Origin: Microbacterium sp. RURRCA19A
Lineage (GTDB): Bacteria > Actinomycetota > Actinomycetes > Actinomycetales > Microbacteriaceae
Direction of reading: 5' to 3'
DNA length: 64,000 nucleotides
Assembly: GCF_900156455.1 (NCBI RefSeq)
Contig: NZ_FTNQ01000001.1
Coordinates: forward strand, 558,001 to 622,000
In this document: positions 26,995-51,394 of the stretch, one piece after another
Layout of the letters: every line of letters begins with the position of its first letter
Numbering within the stretch: the stretch's first letter is position 1
Notes under the pieces: generated by a model
The model's database searches: none
Told to the model about the DNA's origin: nothing
The model's input: only the letters and a program-made list of their open reading frames with translations
Made by a program: the position numbers and the translations under genes

Positions 26995-27027
26995 CGTTCT
27001 TCGTTGCGAAAGCGACCAACACCCAAT

Positions 27028-27112
27028 GCGCGGGTGGCGGAATAGGTAGACGCGCTAGCTTGAGGTGCTAGTGCCCGTATAGGGCGTGGGGGTTCAAGTC
27101 CCCCCTCGCGCA
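27028..27112 (+). tRNA. tRNA-Leu (anticodon GAG)
   Basis: The acceptor arm GCGCGGG (27028-27034) pairs with CTCGCGC (27105-27111) with one G-U pair. The D arm is followed by the anticodon stem CTAGC/GCTAG with loop TTGAGGT, so the anticodon is GAG and reads CUC and CUU. A long class II variable arm (GCCC-GTAT-GGGC) and a T arm GGGGG-TTCAAGT-CCCCC complete it. The 3' CCA is not encoded (the sequence reads ACAG), as is common in actinobacteria. A strong terminator begins 3 bp downstream. Confidence 0.97.
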
Positions 27113-27348
27113 CAGAACGAAGAAGGCCCCGGATTCGTCCGGGGCCTTCTTCGTTGTCTGCGCGAGCGGGAGGGCGGCGAACCCGTGCGGGGTTGGGCCC
27201 ACGCCGCCGGAGGCTCCGCGTGCCGCGCAGCGGCGCGTGGAGGGGCGGTGGGGAAAGTCCCCCCTCGCGCACAGATGAGAAAGACCCCCGGGTTCGTCCC
27301 GGGGGTCTTTCTCATTTCTGCAGGAGTGGGAGGGCGGCTCGACCCGTG
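27096..27348 (+). repeat. Tandem duplication of the tRNA-Leu 3' end plus terminator
   Basis: A block at 27096-27187 recurs at 27255-27348, period 159 bp. The first 21 bases (the T-arm and acceptor end of the tRNA) are identical. Next comes a terminator hairpin in each copy, with a TTCG loop in both but a different stem that still pairs perfectly (the second stem GAGAAAGACCCCCGGG and its complement, about 27277-27313). Both copies then share GGGAGGGCGGC and ACCCGTG. The 67 bp between them shows GCGCGAG at 27160-27166, which could pair with the second CTCGCGC, but no tRNA fold fits. The rest of the 304-bp gap to 27417 holds only the next gene's promoter region. Confidence 0.8.
27116..27155 (+). 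terminator. Terminator of tRNA-Leu
   Basis: Perfect 18-bp arms (AACGAAGAAGGCCCCGGA and its complement) flank a TTCG tetraloop directly after the tRNA. Confidence 0.9.
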
Positions 27349-27416
27349 ACACCGGCGAAACGCCGACGTGACATCGCGGTCGTAGCGTCGAGGCATCCCG
27401 GAAGGATGGATGCCAC

Positions 27417-28460
27417 ATGTACCGGTTCCACGTTCCCACCATCGACATCTCCGCCTGGGTCGGCCGCGGCCCCGAAGCGGCCCGCGCAGCCGTGGTCGCG
27501 GCCGTCGACCACGCCTGCCGCACTGTCGGGTTCATGCAGATCGTCGGGCACGGCGTGCCCGACCGCGTGATCTCCGACCTCGAAGACGCGCTCGACGGCT
27601 TCTTCGGGCTCTCCCTGGATGCCAAGAAGCAGTACGTCCGCCCGGCGGCGGAGAATCGCGGGTACACGCCGCCCAAGAGCGAGTCGCTCAGTTACAGCCT
27701 CGGCATCGACCCGGTGACGCGGATGAACGACTTCTTCGAGGCGTTCAACGTCGGCACGTCGTGGCGCGAGTACCCGGGGACGACCGCGACGGCGGCGGAT
27801 TACGCCGAGAACACGTGGCCGGATGCGGTTCCGGCGTTCCGCTCGTCGATCGAGACCTACTTCGACGAGGCGCGCCGTGTGGCGCGGACGCTCACCCAGA
27901 TCTTCGCCGCGGCGCTGCGGGTGCCCGAGGACTCCCTCGATGCGCTCACCGATCACTCGATCGACGTGCTCAGGATGAACAACTACGCCCTGCCTCCGGG
28001 GTCGATCGAACTCGGCGCGGAGTTGACCGGAATGGGCGAGCACACCGACTTCGGTCTGGTCACGGTGCTGTGGGCCGACCGGGTCGCGGGGTTGCAGGTG
28101 CTGGGGCTCGACGGCTCGTGGAACGACGTCCTGCCCGCCGAGGGCGCGCTGCTGGTGAACATCGGCGACGTGGCCGCGCGCCTCACGAACGACAAGTGGC
28201 TGTCGACGCTGCACCGGGTGAAGCCGCCGGTGATCGACGGAACCATCGAGCGGCGGCGGTCGGCCGCGTTCTTCCACGACGGCAACGCCGACGCGGTGGT
28301 GGGGGTGCTCCCTCACTTCGCGTCGCGCGAGTCTCCCGCGCTGTACGAGCCGGTGACGGTCGCGCAGCACATCGCGGCGAAGCTCGCGGGGTCCCGCGCG
28401 GGCCGGAAGAACGCGTCCGCGGTGCGCGAGGCCGCTCGGCTGACCGCGAGCCGCGGGTGA
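27417..28460 (+). CDS. 2-oxoglutarate/Fe(II) oxygenase, isopenicillin N synthase family
   Basis: The 347-residue product has the N-terminal DIOX_N region (VPTIDISAW; CRTVGFMQIVGHGVP) and a jelly-roll core. The iron ligands are His209 and Asp211 (GEHTDFG) and His266 (LHRVKPP). Arg280-x-Ser282 would bind the co-substrate carboxylate. This plant-like family hydroxylates or cyclises small molecules. No biosynthetic genes flank it, so the substrate is unknown. The ATG is 12 nt after GGAAGG, a long spacing. The gene lies just beyond the tRNA-Leu duplication, and its own 3' end begins a tandem repeat. Confidence 0.88.
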   Translation: MYRFHVPTIDISAWVGRGPEAARAAVVAAVDHACRTVGFMQIVGHGVPDRVISDLEDALDGFFGLSLDAKKQYVRPAAENRGYTPPKSESLSYSLGIDPVTRMNDFFEAFNVGTSWREYPGTTATAADYAENTWPDAVPAFRSSIETYFDEARRVARTLTQIFAAALRVPEDSLDALTDHSIDVLRMNNYALPPGSIELGAELTGMGEHTDFGLVTVLWADRVAGLQVLGLDGSWNDVLPAEGALLVNIGDVAARLTNDKWLSTLHRVKPPVIDGTIERRRSAAFFHDGNADAVVGVLPHFASRESPALYEPVTVAQHIAAKLAGSRAGRKNASAVREAARLTASRG

Positions 28461-28554
28461 GCGCGGGTCCGGCACCGCGCGGATCGTAGCCCAGCGCGGG
28501 CCCGGCACCGCGCGGGTCGTAGCCCGGCACGGGTGAGCGCGGGCCCGGCGCCGC
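28461..28554 (+). repeat. 33-bp tandem repeat after the oxygenase gene
   Basis: A 33-bp unit at 28461-28493 repeats at 28494-28526 with 3 mismatches (core CCGGCACCGCGCGG, then TCGTAGCCC). A third partial copy lies at 28537-28554. The segment CGGGTGAGCGCGGG at the oxygenase stop codon is also repeated near 28531, so the stop codon itself has been copied. Confidence 0.75.
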
Positions 28555-28566
28555 TCGGCATCCCGC

Positions 28567-28631
28567 GATAAACGCGATCCACGCCCAGAAACGCGGGGTC
28601 GTCCCGTTTCTCGTCGTGGATCGCGTTTATC
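28567..28631. repeat. 65-bp palindromic dispersed repeat, copy A
   Basis: The outer arms GATAAACGCGATCCACG and its exact complement (17 bp) enclose an inner dyad AGAAACG...CGTTTCT. Another copy of the same length with about 82% identity lies at 31927-31991. This copy stands between the 3' ends of the oxygenase and VIT1-like genes, where it could also end transcription. Confidence 0.8.
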
Positions 28632-28670
28632 GGGGAGGGAGGGGCGGAACCGCGGGCGGATGCCGGGGCG

Positions 28671-29750
28671 TCAGGCCGCGGACACCCCGAACAGCAGACC
28701 CAGCACGTACGTCACGGCGGCGGCGCCGAAGCCGATCGCGAGCTGTCGCAGGCCGCGCTTGAGCGGCGAGGCGCCGGAGAGCAGGCCCACCATCGCACCG
28801 GTGCCGAGCAGGGCGACGCCCACGAGACCGAGGGCGAGCGCGACCGCCCCGACACCGCTCATACCGAAGATCCACGGCAGGACCGGGATGATCGCGCCGG
28901 AGGCGAAGAACAGGAAGCTGGAGATGGCCGCGCCCCAGGCGCTCCCGACGACCTCGTCCGACGACTCCCCCGGTGCCGCGGCGGCCGGGGCGGTGCCGGC
29001 CTGGGCGGCGGTGACGACCTCGCGCGCCTTCGCCAGGGCCTCCTCGGCATCCATCCCCCGGGTGCGGTAGACGAGCGCGAGCTCGTTGGCATCCAGGTCG
29101 AGGTGCGGAATCGCCGCGTCGGCGAAGTCGCTCTCTTCGGTGGCCTCGAGCAGTTCGCGCTGCGAACGCACCGACACGAACTCCCCCGCGCCCATCGACA
29201 GGGCGCCGGCGAGGAGACCGGCGATGCCGCTGAACAGCACGAAGCTCGGGGCTACACCGGTGGCGCCGACGCCCATCACGAGCGCCAGGTTCGACACGAG
29301 TCCGTCGTTCGCCCCGAACACGGCGGCGCGGAAGGTGCCGGACAGGCGCCGGCGTCCTCGGGCCGCGAGGCCGCGGACGACCTCGTGATGCACCTGCTCG
29401 TCGGCGGCCATCTGCGCGGTCGCGTACGGTTCGTCGGCATAGGGCGAGCGCGCCTCGGCATTCTGGGCGAGCGCGAGCACGAAGATCGAGCCGAAGCGGC
29501 GCGCCATCCAGGCCAGCAGCGTCGTTCCGAGGCCGGGCCGGGGAAGTCGATGCGGGGTGTCGCCGAGCAGGTCGATCCAGTGCTGTTCGTGGCGTCCTTC
29601 GGCCTCGGCGAGCGCGAGGAGGATCTCGCGTTCCTCGCCCGTGCGGCGGCTCGCGAGGTCGCGGTACACGCGGGCCTCGGCACGCTCGTCGACGAGATAG
29701 CGCGCCCAGCGGCGGCGGTCGCGGGCGGTGGGTGTGGCGGCGATCGTCAC
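28671..29750 (-). CDS. VIT1/CCC1-type transporter with N-terminal ferritin-like domain
   Basis: The 359-residue product has a rubrerythrin/ferritin-like helical domain (about 10-130) with E-x-x-H pairs (EAEGRHEQHW; ADEQVHHEVV) and then a VIT1 membrane domain with FGANDGLVSNLALVMGV and SMGAGEFVSVRSQRE. Proteins of this build move iron or manganese across the membrane, with the ferritin-like part binding metal. GTG at 29750 is set by AAGGAGA 4-5 nt upstream. It stands alone, without an iron box that I can see, unlike the siderophore genes. Confidence 0.9.
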   Translation of the reverse strand: MTIAATPTARDRRRWARYLVDERAEARVYRDLASRRTGEEREILLALAEAEGRHEQHWIDLLGDTPHRLPRPGLGTTLLAWMARRFGSIFVLALAQNAEARSPYADEPYATAQMAADEQVHHEVVRGLAARGRRRLSGTFRAAVFGANDGLVSNLALVMGVGATGVAPSFVLFSGIAGLLAGALSMGAGEFVSVRSQRELLEATEESDFADAAIPHLDLDANELALVYRTRGMDAEEALAKAREVVTAAQAGTAPAAAAPGESSDEVVGSAWGAAISSFLFFASGAIIPVLPWIFGMSGVGAVALALGLVGVALLGTGAMVGLLSGASPLKRGLRQLAIGFGAAAVTYVLGLLFGVSAA

Positions 29751-29841
29751 GGTTCTCCTTCGGGTCGCCCCCACGTTAGGCGGCGCGCACCCCTCCCCCG
29801 GGCGCGTCGGCCGATACTGACAGCATTTCGGCCCTCCGAAG

Positions 29842-29863
29842 CCCGGAACGACGCGGTTCCGGG
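29842..29863. terminator. Weak hairpin after the DEAD/DEAH helicase gene
   Basis: CCCGGAAC (29842-29849) and GTTCCGGG (29856-29863) pair around a 6-nt loop in the 171-bp gap between the helicase stop and the VIT1-like start. It is flanked by two copies of CAGCATTTCGG (29821-29831 and 29875-29885). Either a terminator or an operator is possible. Confidence 0.4.
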
Positions 29864-29921
29864 GAACCGGATGCCAGCATTTCGGGGTCGCGAAACCACC
29901 CCGGCGGAGCGGGGCGAGGTC

Positions 29922-31832
29922 TCAGGACCGGACGCGTTTGCGCAGCACTTCGATGCGCGCCTGCAGCTGCGCGACCGTCGCGTGCGAGACGGCGGGTCCG
30001 CCGCAGATGCGGCGCAGTTCGGCGTGCACGAGACCGTGCGCCTCGCCGGTCCGGCGCGCGTAGAGCCCGACGAGGCTGTTGAGCAGCTGCCGTTGCTCTC
30101 TCAGGGTGCGATGCAGCGGCTGCGGAAGTCCGCCCTCGTCGACGCCGGGCGGTTCTCGCCCGCTCTCCTTCTCTTTCGCCTCGCGCGAGGAGCGGTGCCG
30201 CGATTGGCGCGAGGCGCGGGTCATGAGCACCTCGTGCACCTGCTCGGGTTCGAGCAACCCCGGGATGCCGAGGAACTCCTCCTCCTCGACGGTGCCCGGA
30301 ACGGCGAGCTGGCCGAACTCCTGCCCGTCGAACAGCACACGGTCGAAGTGCGCGAGCGAACCGAGGGCCTGATACTCGAACTCCTGCTCGAGCGCGTCGG
30401 ACGCCTTGTCCTCGCGCTCGGCGGCGTCCATCATGTCTTCTTCGGCGTTCCACTGGTCTTCCGCGTCGCTGTCGCGGTCGAGGGCGTGGTCGCGCTGGGC
30501 CTCCATCTCCCCGGCGAGAGCGAGGAGCGGGGGGACGTTGGGGAGGAACACGCTCGCGGTCTCCCCTCGCCGGCGGGCGCGCACGAAGCGGCCGATCGCC
30601 TGGGCGAAGAACAGCGGCGTCGAGGCGCTCGTGGCGTACACGCCGACGGCGAGGCGCGGCACGTCGACGCCCTCGGACACCATGCGGACGGCGACCATCC
30701 ACCGGCTCGTGCCCTTCGAGAACGTCTCGATGCGACTCGACGCCTCGGCCTCGTCGGAGAGGACCACCGTGACCTTCTCGCCGCTGATGTCCTCGAGGAT
30801 CGTGGCGTAGGCGCGGGCCGCGGTCTGGTCGGTCGCGATGATGAGGCCACCGGCATCCGGGACGGTCTCGCGTACCTCGGTGAGGCGTCGGTCGGCCGAG
30901 CGCAGGACCGCGGGGATCCAGTCGCCGTTGGGGTCGAGCGCGGTGCGCCACGCCTGCGAGGTGATGTCCTTGGTGTTGTCCTGTCCGAGCTGGGCCTCCA
31001 TCTCTTCCCCGGCCTTGGTGCGCCAGCGCATCTGCCCGGCGTAGACGAGGAAGAAGACGGGGCGGACGACACCGTCGTCGAGCGCGCGCCGGTAGCCGTA
31101 GGCGTAGTCGGTGCGCGAGAGGCGGATGCCCTTGTCGTTCGGGTGGTACTCCACGAACGGGATGGGCGCGGTGTCGCTGCGGAACGGCGTTCCCGACAGC
31201 AGCAGGCGACGGGTGGCGCGGCCGTACGCTTCGCGGAGCGCGTCGCCCCAGCTGAGCGCGTCGCCGCCGTGGTGCACCTCGTCGAGGATCACCAGGGTCC
31301 TGGCATCCATCGTCAGGCGCTGGTGCACCTCGGCCTTCACGGCCACCTGCGCGTAGGTGACCGCGACGCCGTGGTACTGCCGTGACGGCGTGGCGTGCCG
31401 GTTGGAGAAGTACGGGTCGAGACGGATGCCGACCCGCGCCGCCGCCTCCGCCCACTGGGTCTTGAGGTGCTCGGTGGGGGCCACGACGACGATGCGGTCG
31501 ACGACGCGGCGACGCATGAGTTCGGACGCGAGGCGGAGGGCGAAGGTCGTCTTGCCGGCGCCGGGGGTGGCGGCGGCGAGGAAGTCGCGGGGGCCCTTGC
31601 CGACCCCGTCGGGTCCGTCGGAGCCGAAGTACTGGTCGAGCGCCTCGGCCTGCCACGCACGGAGGCGCTGGGCGGTGCCCCACGGGGCGCGCTGCGGGAA
31701 CGAGGGCGACAGGTGCTCGGCGGCGAAGCTTCCGAAGTGGTGCTCGTCGGCGGACTCCCCGAACGACAGTTCGGACTCGGCCGCGTCGGAGGTGTTCGGG
31801 AGGGCCGATGCGCGGGCTTCTTCTTCCAGCAT
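29922..31832 (-). CDS. DEAD/DEAH box helicase (superfamily 2)
   Basis: The 636-residue product has ATPGAGKTTFALRLASEL (Walker A, about 82), VILDEVHHGGD (DEVH box), LLLSGTPFRSD (motif III) and AQAIGRFVRARRRGE (motif VI). The nuclease-like or accessory domains of restriction helicases are absent. The C-terminal 150 residues are charged and helical, with EKESGREPP. It resembles the actinobacterial helicases related to the type III restriction helicase fold and is probably involved in DNA repair or RNA metabolism. ATG at 31832 has AAGGAGG 5 nt upstream. Copy B of the palindromic repeat lies about 95 bp further upstream. Confidence 0.88.
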   Translation of the reverse strand: MLEEEARASALPNTSDAAESELSFGESADEHHFGSFAAEHLSPSFPQRAPWGTAQRLRAWQAEALDQYFGSDGPDGVGKGPRDFLAAATPGAGKTTFALRLASELMRRRVVDRIVVVAPTEHLKTQWAEAAARVGIRLDPYFSNRHATPSRQYHGVAVTYAQVAVKAEVHQRLTMDARTLVILDEVHHGGDALSWGDALREAYGRATRRLLLSGTPFRSDTAPIPFVEYHPNDKGIRLSRTDYAYGYRRALDDGVVRPVFFLVYAGQMRWRTKAGEEMEAQLGQDNTKDITSQAWRTALDPNGDWIPAVLRSADRRLTEVRETVPDAGGLIIATDQTAARAYATILEDISGEKVTVVLSDEAEASSRIETFSKGTSRWMVAVRMVSEGVDVPRLAVGVYATSASTPLFFAQAIGRFVRARRRGETASVFLPNVPPLLALAGEMEAQRDHALDRDSDAEDQWNAEEDMMDAAEREDKASDALEQEFEYQALGSLAHFDRVLFDGQEFGQLAVPGTVEEEEFLGIPGLLEPEQVHEVLMTRASRQSRHRSSREAKEKESGREPPGVDEGGLPQPLHRTLREQRQLLNSLVGLYARRTGEAHGLVHAELRRICGGPAVSHATVAQLQARIEVLRKRVRS

Positions 31833-31926
31833 CGAACCTCCTTCCCTCGCGAGCGCGAACATCCACGATAGGCGAGATCGCGGAGGTGCGGTGGCCGCCT
31901 GGGGAGCGTTCCGCGACACCATCAGC

Positions 31927-31991
31927 GATAAACGCGATCGGCGACCAGAAACGTGCCGTCGTCCTGTGTTTCGCCGTGGATGCCGTTTATC
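31927..31991. repeat. 65-bp palindromic dispersed repeat, copy B
   Basis: The ends GATAAACGCGATC and CCGTTTATC match copy A at 28567-28631; the length is identical and 53 of 65 positions agree. Pairing of the arms is less perfect than in copy A. It lies in the 271-bp divergent gap between the helicase and SGNH hydrolase genes. The remaining part of the gap holds their promoters (TATCGT for the helicase, TAGCCT for the hydrolase). Confidence 0.8.
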
Positions 31992-32103
31992 AGGACGGAG
32001 TGAGACGGCGAGCAGGGCGGCCCCGCCGGGCGCAGCGGAGAGGGGTACGGGCAGGCCCCTTGCCGTGTCGGAGGGCGGGGTTAGCCTGGAGGCGGAGGTT
32101 TCG

Positions 32104-32961
32104 ATGACACTCGATCCGCACTCGCCCGCTCCGTCTCCGTCCGACAACGCCGGCCCGCATCCCTGGCGCCGCTTCGTCGCCCTCGGCGACTCCTTCACCG
32201 AGGGGATCGGCGACCCCCTGCCCGACGGCGGACACCGCGGCTGGGCCGACCGTGTCGCCGAGGTCCTGGCATCCCAGGTCGACGACTTCGCGTACGCCAA
32301 CCTCGCCGTGCGCGGGAAGCTGATCGGCCAGATCGTCGCCGACCAGATCGAACCGGCGTTGGCGCTGAAACCCGACCTCATCACGTTCTCGGCGGGCGGC
32401 AACGACGTCATCCGCCCCGGCACCGATCCCGACGTGGTGTCGCAGCAGTTCGAGGATGCCGTCGTGCGGCTGCGCCGCGACGGTGCGACGCTCGTCGTGT
32501 TCACCGGGATCGACACCGAGTTCACGCCGGTGTTCCGCGGTATCCGCGGCAAGGTCGCGATCTACAACGAGAACATCCGCTCGATCGCCGACCGCTACGA
32601 CTGCATCGTCGCGAACCAGTGGGGGCTGAAAGAGGTGCAGGACATGCGCTTCTTCGACGACGACCGCCTCCACTACAACACCCTCGGCCATCACGAGGTC
32701 GCCCGGATGGTGCTGCGCGCCCTCAACGTCCCCAACGAACTGCAGCCGATGCAGCCCGAGGCCCTTCCGCCGACGACGTGGCGCGCCGCACGCGAGAAAG
32801 ACCTCGTCTGGGCCCGCGCCTACCTCGTGCCGTGGGTGCTGCGGCGCCTGCGCCACGAGTCGTCGGGCGACCACATCCAGCCCAAGCGCCCCGAGCCGCT
32901 GCCCGTGGTGACCCTCGCCCCGGGCCGGGATGCCGCGGCCTCGCGCGGGACGCAGGTCTGA
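32104..32961 (+). CDS. SGNH/GDSL hydrolase family esterase
   Basis: The 285-residue product has block I FVALGDSFTEGIGD (Ser nucleophile), a block II Gly in NLAVRGKLIG, block III FSAGGNDV and block V DDDRLHYNTLGHHEV with the Asp-x-x-His pair. The SGNH fold ends near residue 215, and the tail is charged. There is no signal peptide, so it is an intracellular esterase or lipase of unknown substrate. GGAGGCGGAGG lies before the ATG. The stop is one base from the stop of the convergent methyltransferase gene, with no room for a terminator between. Confidence 0.9.
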   Translation: MTLDPHSPAPSPSDNAGPHPWRRFVALGDSFTEGIGDPLPDGGHRGWADRVAEVLASQVDDFAYANLAVRGKLIGQIVADQIEPALALKPDLITFSAGGNDVIRPGTDPDVVSQQFEDAVVRLRRDGATLVVFTGIDTEFTPVFRGIRGKVAIYNENIRSIADRYDCIVANQWGLKEVQDMRFFDDDRLHYNTLGHHEVARMVLRALNVPNELQPMQPEALPPTTWRAAREKDLVWARAYLVPWVLRRLRHESSGDHIQPKRPEPLPVVTLAPGRDAAASRGTQV

Positions 32962-32962
32962 G

Positions 32963-33769
32963 TCAGCGCAACCCGCGCCCCAGTTCCCACAGCGCCACCG
33001 CGCTCGCCGCGGCGACGTTGAGCGAGTCCACTCCCCCGGCCATCGGGATCGTCACGACCGTGTCGGCCGCGGCGAGCGCCCCGCGGCTCAGCCCGTCGCC
33101 CTCGGCGCCCATCAGCAGTGCCACCCGCTCGTGCCCGGCCGCGGCGAACGCGTCGAGGGTGACGGCGTCCTCGGCGAGCGCGAGGGCGGCGAGGTGCAGC
33201 CCCGCCCGCTGCAGCAGCGGCTTGGCCTCGGGCCACTCGGGCAGCCGCGTCCACGGCACCTGGAACACCGTCCCCATGCTCACCCGCACGCTCCGGCGAT
33301 AGAGCGGGTCGGCGCACCGCGGGGTGACGAGCACCGCGTCGGCACCGAGCGCGGCCGCGGAACGGAACGCGGCACCGACGTTGGTGTGGTCGACGATGTC
33401 CTCGAGCACGACCACGAGCCGGGCGTCCTTCACGACGTCCTCGACGGATGCCAGGATCGGCCGGTGCATGGATGCCAGCAACCCCCGGTGCACGGTGTAT
33501 CCCGTCACCTGTTCCGCGACCTCGGCCGGAACGACGTAGATCTCGGCATCCTCGCCGGCGAGGGCGAGCGCGTCGTCGAGGAACTTCTCCTGTACGAGCA
33601 CGGAGCGCGGACGATGACCGGCGCGCAGCGCCCGATCCAGCACTTTGGCGGACTCCGCGATGTACAGCCCGCCCGCGGGCTCCGACACCCGCCGCAACGA
33701 CACGTCGGTGAGGTCGCGGTAGTCCGCCAGTCGGGGGTCGGAGGCGGCGTCGATGGAGATCACGGGCAT
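32963..33769 (-). CDS. TrmH/SpoU family RNA 2'-O-methyltransferase
   Basis: The 268-residue product has an N-terminal substrate-binding domain (about 1-100) and a SPOUT knot domain with VVLEDIVDHTNVGAAFRSAAALGAD, LLMGAEGDGLS and IPMAGGVDSLNVAAASAVALWE, the three SpoU motifs. It methylates a ribose in rRNA or tRNA; which one cannot be said. ATG at 33769 lies six bases after CAGAGT, a weaker form of the leaderless pattern. Confidence 0.92.
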   Translation of the reverse strand: MPVISIDAASDPRLADYRDLTDVSLRRVSEPAGGLYIAESAKVLDRALRAGHRPRSVLVQEKFLDDALALAGEDAEIYVVPAEVAEQVTGYTVHRGLLASMHRPILASVEDVVKDARLVVVLEDIVDHTNVGAAFRSAAALGADAVLVTPRCADPLYRRSVRVSMGTVFQVPWTRLPEWPEAKPLLQRAGLHLAALALAEDAVTLDAFAAAGHERVALLMGAEGDGLSRGALAAADTVVTIPMAGGVDSLNVAAASAVALWELGRGLR

Positions 33770-50149: not shown

Positions 50150-51394
50150 ATGCCTGCAGCGCCGAAGGTCTTCGGAATCATCCTCGCCGGCGGCGAGGGA
50201 AAGCGACTCATGCCCCTGACGGCCGACCGCGCCAAACCCGCCGTGCCCTTCGGGGGTCAGTACCGCCTGATCGACTTCGCGATCTCGAATCTCATCAACT
50301 CGGGACTCCGCCAGCTCGTCGTCCTGACGCAGTACAAGTCGCACAGTCTCGACCGGCACATCTCCCAGACGTGGCGGATGTCGCCGATGCTGGGGTCGTA
50401 CGTGGCATCCGTCCCCGCCCAGCAGCGGCTCGGCAAGCGCTGGTTCTCCGGTTCGGCAGACGCGATCCTGCAGTCGATGAACCTCATCCGCGACGAGAAG
50501 CCCGACATCGTCGTCGTCATCGGCGCCGATCACGTGTACCGCATGGACTTCGCGCAGATGCTCGACGCGCACATCGCCTCCGATGCGCGCGCCACGGTCG
50601 CCGGCATCCGTCAGCCCATCTCGCTCGCGAACCAGTTCGGCGTCATCGACACCGACCCGTCCGATCCGACGATGATCCGCGAGTTCCTCGAGAAGCCGCA
50701 GAACCCGACGGGGCTCGCCGACGCACCGCACGAGGTGCTCGCTTCGATGGGCAACTACATCTTCGACGCCGACGCGCTCGTCGAGGCCGTCACGCACGAC
50801 GGCGAACTGCCGACCTCCGCGCACGACATGGGCGGCGACATCGTTCCGTACTTCGTCAATCGCGGCGAAGCGGCGGTCTACGACTTCCAGCGCAATGACG
50901 TTCCCGGGTCGACCTCGCGCGACCGGTCGTACTGGCGCGACGTCGGCACGATCGAGTCGTTCTACGACGCCCACATGGATCTGATCTCGACGCTGCCCAT
51001 CTTCAACCTCTACAACACCGACTGGCCGATCTACTCGCAGACCGTCAACGCTCCCCCGGCGAAGTTCGTGCGCGACTCCGTGGGCCGGATCGGCAACGCC
51101 ATCGACTCGATCGTCTCCCTCGGTTCCGTGCTCTCGGGCACGCATCTCGAGCGCAGTGTCGTCGGGCCGTGGGCGCTGGCCGGCGGCGGATCGACGATCA
51201 CCGACTCGGTGCTCTTCGACGGCGTGCAGGTCGGCGCGGGAGCGCGTATCCACCGCGCGATCCTCGACAAGAACGTGACCCTGGCCCCCGGCGCGACCAT
51301 CGGTGTCGACCGCGAACGCGACCTCGCGCGCGGGTTCACCGTGACCGAGACCGGCATCACCGTCGTCGGGAAGGACGTCCGCGTCGAGGGCTGA
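50150..51394 (+). CDS. glgC: Glucose-1-phosphate adenylyltransferase
   Basis: The 414-residue product has [28 protein letters not shown] (nucleotide site), [36 protein letters not shown] and FLEKPQNP, then a left-handed beta-helix (about 290-414). It makes ADP-glucose for glycogen or maltose-1-phosphate. ATG at 50150 lies six bases after TATGGT, so leaderless. It is divergent from glgA with only 76 bp between the starts, so one region controls both. Confidence 0.96.

What the first reader, a model, noticed from the sequence alone, without database searches (positions are those of the whole stretch)
28567..31991. Two copies of a 65-bp imperfect palindrome, a possible REP-like family
Copies at 28567-28631 and 31927-31991 have the same length and about 82% identity, with conserved ends (GATAAACGCGATC ... 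CGTTTATC) and inner AGAAACG dyad. One is between convergent genes and the other between divergent genes, so a plain terminator role does not explain both. The A+T-rich GATAAACG ends stand out in this GC background. It could be a small non-autonomous element or a nucleoid/protein-binding site.
Basis: seen in the sequence. Interest (0 to 1): 0.65.

Follow-up and report, generated by a model that had tools for sequence, protein, structure and literature searches.

The report
Palindrome family with partner nuclease gene
The two 65-base palindromes belong to a family of about fifty sites in this Microbacterium genome that seems to be partnered with a nuclease-like protein whose own gene sits between two such sites, much like the known REP/RAYT repeats but with an unrelated enzyme.

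Summary
The window copies are two of 52 full-length 65-bp palindromes in this Microbacterium genome; 51 of 52 lie between predicted genes. Each arm repeats one 8-bp word 19 bp apart.

The family occurs in 56 of 366 genomes of the genus. Copies sit in orthologous gaps across species (31 of 48 gaps), yet the words differ by species and change largely in concert.

The likely partner is a protein with an AbiEi-like front and a Vsr/homing-endonuclease-like back, encoded between nusG and rplK with palindromes on both sides. A close version is present in 32 of 40 genomes with 13 or more element matches and in none of the other 326. More distant relatives at other loci carry palindromes with different words: both flanks in 44 of 50 Microbacterium loci overall; related flanks in 23 of 42 loci from other genera. 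Element type follows the protein, not nusG (partial r 0.54, p 0.0002).

It works like REP/RAYT but lacks the RAYT enzyme. Binding, cutting and mobility are inferred, not shown.

The parts
28567..28631 (.). Copy 1 of the 65-bp palindrome (G000:C3:586567-586631), in a convergent gap
   Evidence: flanking genes; orthologous copy at G007:C1:936733; decayed half-arm in the orthologous G009 gap
28567..28574 (+). outer word GATAAACG, left arm, copy 1
   Evidence: columns 4 and 6-10 invariant in 42 copies
28586..28593 (+). inner word, left arm, copy 1 (CAGAAACG; family consensus GAGAAACG), 19 bp from the outer word
28594..28604 (.). variable 11-bp centre, copy 1
28605..28612 (-). inner word, right arm, copy 1
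28624..28631 (-). outer word, right arm, copy 1
31927..31991 (.). Copy 2 of the 65-bp palindrome (G000:C3:589927-589991), in a divergent gap
   Evidence: orthologous copies in G007, G009, G016, G020
27417..28460 (+). gene left of copy 1: DIOX_N / 2OG-FeII_Oxy oxygenase
28671..29750 (-). gene right of copy 1: VIT family protein
29922..31832 (-). gene left of copy 2: ResIII/DEAD helicase
32104..32961 (+). gene right of copy 2: GDSL-like lipase. (The partner nuclease-like gene is outside the window, at G000:C5:71354-72307.)
   Evidence: partner gene

Best explanation
The 65-bp palindromes are the dispersed target sites of a partner protein, in a two-part system that works like REP/RAYT but uses an unrelated enzyme. 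The partner has an AbiEi-like N-terminal half (winged-helix DNA binding in AbiEi is recalled) and a Vsr/EDxHD homing-endonuclease-like C-terminal domain; in this genome it is encoded at G000:C5:71354-72307 between nusG and rplK, with one palindrome on each side. Inferred: a dimer binds the site as double-stranded DNA, reading the outer and inner 8-bp words of each arm, which are 19 bp (about two helix turns) apart. Inferred: it occasionally cuts at or near a site and repair copies another site in, so copies spread, stay full length and change together when the protein's specificity changes. SHOWN by calls: the family, its geometry, its place in gaps, its orthologous positions, concerted change, the flanking of the gene, co-variation of protein and site, and the predicted fold. 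NOT SHOWN: binding, cutting, copying. My sub-estimates: partnership 0.85; direct binding of the palindrome by this protein 0.75; nuclease-driven copying or conversion 0.4.
For: 52 full-length copies in G000 and nothing between 42.7 and 18.2 bits (150 candidates scored). Word repeat: in 81 elements picked by palindromicity alone from 51 loci, the outer word matches the word 19 bp further in at 6.29 of 8 positions, against at most 3.62 at the other 12 offsets tried. Flanking: 44 of 50 Microbacterium family loci have a 65-bp palindrome on both sides by a score that ignores the letters, against 1.7% of 290 control windows, which include some real extra copies; of the 18 of these loci that are not beside nusG/rplK in the sequence held (protein 42-50% identical, words such as GAGAAACC, GAGACTTG, GAGACGGC), 15 pass on both sides. 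Other genera: up and down flanks alike beyond the 99th percentile in 23 of 42 loci against shuffles and in 23 of 42 against real mismatched flanks. Co-occurrence: close-type gene (E < 1e-130) in 32 of 366 genomes, all among the 40 with 13 or more element matches. Co-variation: over 28 loci partial r(protein, element | nusG) 0.54, p 0.0002; r(nusG, element) 0.03. Concerted change: G007-G000 orthologous copies differ by 0.305, as non-orthologous ones do (0.298), against 0.142 and 0.176 within G007 and G000. Fold: pLDDT 87.5, pTM 0.85; residues 188-294 match I-Bth0305I Z 9.7, NGO0050 Z 9.1, Vsr Z 8.1; residues 6-183 match AbiEi 6y8q Z 7.7. D226, E237 and D239 of alignment A3 are invariant in 7 sequences. 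I-Bth0305I is reported to dimerise on a target of nearly 60 bp (PMC3943268, passages).
Against: Of the 40 genomes with 13 or more element matches, 8 have no close-type hit: G116 has no family match at 1e-20 yet 42 matches, about 21 copies; G079 has only a broken remnant beside rplK yet its sites are well kept; G165, G366 and G368 have only weak relatives; G201 (E 1e-75) and G350 (E 2e-109) have diverged ones, G350's with a site 13 bp after it; G260 matches only over residues 108-315. The co-occurrence is partly shared ancestry: the first seven element genomes are each other's near relatives by rplK (97-100% to G000). 19 of 42 loci in other genera show no flank similarity; paralog L317 of this genome has no matching flanks. 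Concerted change is not complete in every pair: orthologous copies are closer than non-orthologous ones for G009-G000 (0.225 v 0.270), G016-G000 (0.231 v 0.268), G020-G000 (0.262 v 0.280) and strongly for G020-G016 (0.109 v 0.223). No insertion polymorphism with clean ends was found. Left-right co-variation of the middle block (z 4.4 in G000, 3.2 in G020, not significant in the other four genomes at 0.05 except G009 at 0.049) would also fit a hairpin. Pfam matches to AbiEi_4, DUF559 and MTES_1575 are below cut-off; Foldseek alone gave nothing at E <= 0.001 and Z 8-10 is moderate.
Confidence: 0.75

Rival explanations
1. Regulatory sites only: the protein is a DNA-binding regulator (AbiEi autoregulates through inverted repeats; recalled) and the dispersed palindromes are its operators or chromosome-organising sites. 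They never move and change together by ordinary co-evolution with the regulator.
For: Positions conserved across species; constrained words and free centre; near-fixed length; heterogeneous intermediate sites in some genomes; partial memory of ancestry at orthologous sites. AbiEi-like N-terminal half.
Against: Convergent gaps are enriched (25 of 52 copies against 11 of 62 window gaps, p 5e-7), odd for operators. Sites also lie after the gene (47 of 50 loci), the gene keeps invariant nuclease-like acids, and extra near-identical copies stand in single gaps.
Confidence: 0.3
2. Non-autonomous transposable elements (MITE-like) of an ordinary insertion sequence, with the nuclease-like gene a bystander.
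For: Dispersed palindromes with conserved ends; 17 of 48 G000 gaps not seen as shared with the five other genomes.
Against: Letter-blind flanking of this one protein family at many loci and in several genera; co-variation with the protein; no truncated copies found in G000. Target duplications were not systematically tested.
Confidence: 0.07
3. Bidirectional transcription terminators or RNA hairpins.
For: Enriched in convergent gaps; copy 1 folds very stably; some left-right co-variation.
Against: No run of T in the six bases on either side of the copies listed; 7 of 52 copies in divergent gaps; copy 2 on the + strand folds hardly better than shuffles; columns 26/44 of A1 are unpaired in 20 of 42 copies; the centre pairs no better than shuffled arms.
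Confidence: 0.08

Closest known systems
REP / RAYT (REPtrons, TnpA-REP)
   Same: Many dispersed intergenic palindromes; partner gene flanked by two of them; clusters; co-evolution of protein and palindrome (PMC2817692, abstract and passages; PMC8266576, abstract).
   Different: RAYTs are Y1 HUH transposases (PF01797), not found in this genome; here the enzyme is Vsr-like. REPs are described as 20-40 bp and sorted into GTAG- and CGTC-tagged families (PMC3733652, title and start of abstract); these are 65 bp with word repeats 19 bp apart.
EDxHD / Vsr-fold homing endonucleases (I-Bth0305I)
   Same: Best structural match of the C-terminal domain (Z 9.7); reported to dimerise on nearly 60 bp of DNA (PMC3943268, passages).
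   Different: That review groups EDxHD enzymes with phage-derived ones; here a chromosomal gene sits between two sites with dozens of further copies. The G000 protein has no match in the plasmid (E 1e-8) or phage (E 1e-5) collections.
AbiE toxin-antitoxin, AbiEi antitoxin
   Same: N-terminal half resembles AbiEi (Z 7.7, 6.1 A over 164 residues).
   Different: Beside it stand nusG and rplK, not an AbiEii gene; a nuclease-like domain follows instead.
MTES_1575 / DUF559 Vsr-like restriction-endonuclease domains
   Same: Weak Pfam matches; MTES_1575 was described as a Vsr-family REase domain in a large HEPN fusion protein of Microbacterium testaceum (PMC3710099, passages).
   Different: No palindrome association in the passages I read; the protein here is about 280-317 residues.

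Membership tests
REP/RAYT | Dispersed, multi-copy, essentially intergenic palindromes | tested here: met
   52 copies, 51 between predicted genes in G000; 31 of 34 in G007
REP/RAYT | Partner gene flanked by two of the palindromes | tested here: met
   44 of 50 loci, but the partner is a different protein
REP/RAYT | Y1 HUH transposase partner (PF01797) | tested here: not met
   no match in this genome at E 0.01; the control search rang in 6 of 14 genomes
REP/RAYT | 20-40 bp palindrome with GTAG or CGTC tag | tested here: not met
   65 bp, ends GATAAACG in this genome
REP/RAYT | Enzyme processes folded single-stranded palindrome | not testable with these tools
   -
EDxHD homing endonuclease | Vsr-like catalytic fold | tested here: met
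   Z 9.7 over 94 residues on an AF2 model; moderate score, fold only
EDxHD homing endonuclease | E-D-x-H-D catalytic motif | tested here: inconclusive
   invariant D226, E237, D239 and other acids in A3, not aligned to the motif residue by residue
EDxHD homing endonuclease | Cleaves its target and copies itself in | not testable with these tools
   -
AbiE toxin-antitoxin | AbiEii nucleotidyltransferase toxin beside AbiEi | tested here: not met
   nusG and rplK both found beside the gene in 26 of 30 nusG-rplK loci, one of them in the other 4; no AbiEii profile search was run and other loci were not examined for it
AbiE toxin-antitoxin | AbiEi fold | tested here: inconclusive
   Z 7.7, under the tool's caution level of 8; Pfam AbiEi_4 below cut-off
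MITE / insertion sequence | Target-site duplication | not tested
   flanks only read by eye
Intrinsic terminator | Hairpin followed by T run | tested here: not met
   six flanking bases on each side of the copies; the terminator scan tool was not run
Rfam families | Match at the palindromes | tested here: not met
   no match overlapping either copy in window 27000-33000, E up to 5

The most novel reading that the evidence does not exclude
A previously undescribed class of REP-like system, present across the order: Vsr-fold, homing-type nucleases, each encoded between two copies of its own long palindromic site, keep up and rewrite a set of dispersed chromosomal sites by cutting and repair from other copies. 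The sites of a genome are thereby rewritten in place when the protein's specificity changes.
Probability: 0.35. Interest if true: 0.95.

Novelty: categorically new. Interest (0 to 1): 0.87.

Why it matters
REP/RAYT is the known case of dispersed bacterial palindromes with a partner enzyme encoded between two of them. A second, non-homologous instance in Actinomycetales would show that this life style arose more than once. It would give a function to a set of proteins that otherwise show only weak AbiEi/DUF559 similarity, and it offers many natural protein-site pairs with different specificities for decoding how a nuclease reads a long palindrome. The concerted change of dozens of sites at fixed positions is a sharp, testable puzzle.

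Tried and rejected
RAYT search in the own genome: none. Rfam: nothing at the palindromes. Conserved asymmetric centre: only weak (G000 log-likelihood 174.5 against null 149.1, sd 15.4, 1.6 sd; G007 1.1 sd and G020 1.4 sd above, G016 and G006 below their nulls). Chromosome position: by eye on the closed genome G007 copies look sparse between 1.83 and 2.89 Mb and around the record ends; no test was run. Window 50475-50541 (18.2 bits; sequence) is taken as chance. The first gene caller chose shadow ORFs and was replaced; its counts are not used. The cross-genome gap test is biased, because loci were fetched for holding copies. Plasmid and phage collections: no match to the G000 protein. Solved structures by sequence: best E 0.64, unrelated names. 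NCBIfam: best E 0.016, nothing convincing.

Literature: searches listed no paper that ties DUF559, AbiEi or Vsr-like proteins to flanking palindromes. One search held 3,319 papers with two of three terms and showed 15, none of them with all three terms, so a paper with DUF559 and one other term could be hidden. Only open-licence PMC papers are held; a paper elsewhere is possible. Papers seen: passages of PMC3710099, PMC2817692, PMC3733652, PMC3943268, PMC11879112 and PMC8049555, outline and abstract of PMC8266576, the rest as listings.

Selection and limits: 17 of the 42 'other genera' loci are further family members that I picked from genomes some of which were already known to have a positive first member; among the 25 first-picked usable loci 15 pass the cross-flank test (counted from the rows). 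Dropped before counting: four loci cut by contig ends (95 of 99 used). Copies of G006 were fetched mostly at clusters and those of G020 and G016 in part, so shared-gap counts are lower bounds. The orthology groups join neighbouring gaps that share a gene, so some 'orthologous' pairs are from adjacent gaps. The geometry score includes the word repeat; one search repeats that point with elements picked by palindromicity alone. One search used 28 of 32 loci (four lacked enough nusG), with nusG taken from the best single match. With real mismatched flanks as the null 'other Microbacterium' passes in only 7 of 23, because its loci share related palindromes with each other. One search scored at most about 13 candidates per genome with stricter filters, so its counts are floors.
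Full report
THE OBSERVATION. A search of the own genome (G000, 3.67 Mb, 15 contigs; the ten relatives found by protein are all titled Microbacterium) with copy 1 gave many matches on both strands. A model of 42 copies (R1) then found 52 distinct full-length copies, the lowest at 42.7 bits and the next match at 18.2; 150 of 10,061 first-look candidates were scored. In G000 51 of 52 lie between predicted genes (the exception overlaps a weak 53-codon call): 25 convergent, 19 tandem, 7 divergent; in G007 3 of 34 overlap predicted genes. Against 11 convergent of 62 gaps in the window, convergent gaps are enriched (p 5e-7).

ANATOMY. In 42 aligned copies the columns for AAACG at both ends and for A, A and C of the inner words are invariant. 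Each arm is: outer word GATAAACG, a middle block, inner word GAGAAACG, then an 11-bp centre that is nearly free. The inner word starts exactly 19 bp after the outer one. In 81 elements from 51 loci chosen by palindromicity alone, the outer word matches the word at that offset at 6.29 of 8 positions and at no other of the 12 offsets tried above 3.62. The centre pairs no better than shuffled arms, and in G007 and G020 less; the middle block pairs better than shuffled in G000 (z 4.4) and G020 (z 3.2), not clearly in the other four genomes. One inner position is unpaired in 20 of 42 copies. I read this as recognition of double-stranded arms, with some pressure for symmetry; it does not exclude a hairpin. 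In relatives a few copies differ in length by one base.

RELATIVES. With R1, 5 of 22 same-genus relatives of the first set had copies and none of the 15 from other genera. With a mixed model (R2), 56 of 366 genomes of the genus match at E <= 1e-4; 40 of these have 13 or 14 matches, which is about the ceiling of that search. Fuller searches gave, for example, 42 matches (about 21 copies) in G116 and 14 in G201 and G350. Geometry is the same but the words differ: GATAAACG/GAGAAACG in G000, CATAAACG/CATAAACG in G007, CATAAACA/CAGAAACA in G006, GATAAACG/GAGACACG in G020. Outer and inner word change together.

SAME PLACES, DIFFERENT LETTERS. Grouping copies by orthologous neighbours, 31 of 48 element-bearing gap groups of G000 are shared with at least one of five other genomes; G007 26 of 31, G020 22 of 23, G016 18 of 20, G009 8 of 9, G006 6 of 10 (fetching was incomplete for G006, G020 and G016). 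Both window copies have orthologous copies: copy 2 in four genomes, copy 1 in G007; in G009 the copy-1 gap keeps only what looks like a decayed half-arm. Between G000 and G007 orthologous copies are as different as non-orthologous ones (0.305 against 0.298), while copies within each genome differ by 0.176 and 0.142. In the close pair G020-G016 orthologs are much closer (0.109 against 0.223), and a weaker memory remains for G009-G000, G016-G000 and G020-G000. So sites are inherited in place, and over longer times they are rewritten together.

THE PARTNER. Reading the gap upstream of rplK (L11; named from its sequence) showed a gene of about 280-317 codons between nusG and rplK, with elements beside it, in 7 of 7 element-bearing genomes of the sample; in 20 other genomes no relative of it lies in the 1.5 kb held upstream of rplK, and nusG is visible there in 14. 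Of 366 genomes, 32 have a close relative (E < 1e-130) and all 32 are among the 40 with 13 or more element matches. In 30 of 30 loci examined nusG, rplK or both were found next to it (both in 26). The protein is 57-83% identical to that of G000 there, against 83% or more for nusG.

THE LETTER-BLIND TEST. Relatives of the protein not beside nusG or rplK (18 loci, 42-50% identical) also have 65-bp palindromes at both ends in 15 of 18, with other words (GAGAAACC, GAGACTTG, GAGACGGC, GAGACACA). By a score that uses only symmetry plus word repeat, 46 of 50 upstream and 47 of 50 downstream flanks and 44 of 50 pairs reach 28, against 1.7% of 290 control windows. Of the six failures, two are contig ends (L192, L205) and one (G020) has its elements on that side slightly further out. 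In other genera of the order, 23 of 42 loci have up and down flanks more alike than 99% of shuffled or of real mismatched flanks; 15 of 42 score above 60 against 2 of 1650 mismatched pairs. Palindromes of 18/24 or better occur in 24 upstream and 22 downstream flanks of 42, against 3.6% of 166 distal stretches. Restricted to the 25 first-picked loci the cross-flank test is passed by 15. Paralogs within one genome have different palindromes, and the second type of this genome (GAGACTGCA) has at least one further copy away from its gene.

CO-EVOLUTION. In 28 nusG-rplK loci the distance between flanking elements follows the distance between proteins (r 0.54), not between nusG proteins (r 0.03); the partial correlation given nusG is 0.54, p 0.0002. 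Protein and nusG distances are themselves uncorrelated (0.04), which suggests exchange of the locus between species; this is unexplained, given that in the genomes studied in detail the dispersed sites agree with the resident type.

THE PROTEIN. AlphaFold2 on ten orthologs: pLDDT 87.5, pTM 0.85. Residues 188-294 resemble the catalytic domain of homing endonuclease I-Bth0305I (Z 9.7, 3.0 A, 94 residues), NGO0050 (Z 9.1) and Vsr (Z 8.1); residues 6-183 resemble AbiEi (Z 7.7, 6.1 A). Foldseek alone gave no match at E <= 0.001. Pfam matches to MTES_1575 (3 of 7 sequences), DUF559 and AbiEi_4 (1 each) are below cut-off. Catalytic-looking acids are invariant. I-Bth0305I is reported to dimerise on nearly 60 bp (PMC3943268, passages), which fits a 65-bp palindrome.

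AGAINST. Eight of the 40 genomes have no close-type hit. In G079 a broken remnant remains beside a well-kept element, so loss looks recent there; G116 shows nothing at 1e-20, and its outer AAAC is kept in 0.78 of arms against 1.00 in G000, but G009, which has the gene, is at 0.85, so decay after loss is not established. Shared ancestry explains part of the co-occurrence. 19 of 42 loci of other genera fail. Binding, cutting and copying are not shown by anything here.

VERDICT. An orderly palindrome family, found in part of the genus, whose partner is very probably this AbiEi/Vsr-like protein. It works like REP/RAYT; it is not a member, since the RAYT enzyme and the REP form were tested and not met. 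I call it categorically new because no known family passed its membership test; a reader who counts every palindrome-plus-enzyme pair as one kind would call it a new variant.

Noticed in passing
window 28420-28550: By eye, a GC-rich stretch with imperfect direct repeats of about 34 bp (CGGCACCGCGCGGRTCGTAGCCC) lies between the oxygenase gene and copy 1.
   Followed up: no
window 27107-27164 and 27266-27324: Two strong hairpins just after a tRNA gene (27028-27112) start with the same CGCGCACAGA; they look like a pair of related terminators.
   Followed up: no
G000:C3:30843-31769 (L315) and L085:699: A second family member in this genome is flanked by a different 65-bp palindrome (GAGACTGCA...TGCAGTCTC), with a further copy elsewhere in the genome.
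   Followed up: partly
L064, L065, L071-L074 (G020, G006): Up to four copies stand in one gap, about 125-265 bp apart, several nearly identical; they look like tandem duplications of element plus spacer.
   Followed up: partly
L206 (G079:C1:2318500-2323500): The nuclease-like gene between nusG and rplK is a broken remnant in G079, while one adjacent element is well kept.
   Followed up: partly
nusG-rplK loci of 28 genomes: Protein distance and nusG distance are uncorrelated (r 0.04), which suggests exchange of this locus between species.
   Followed up: no
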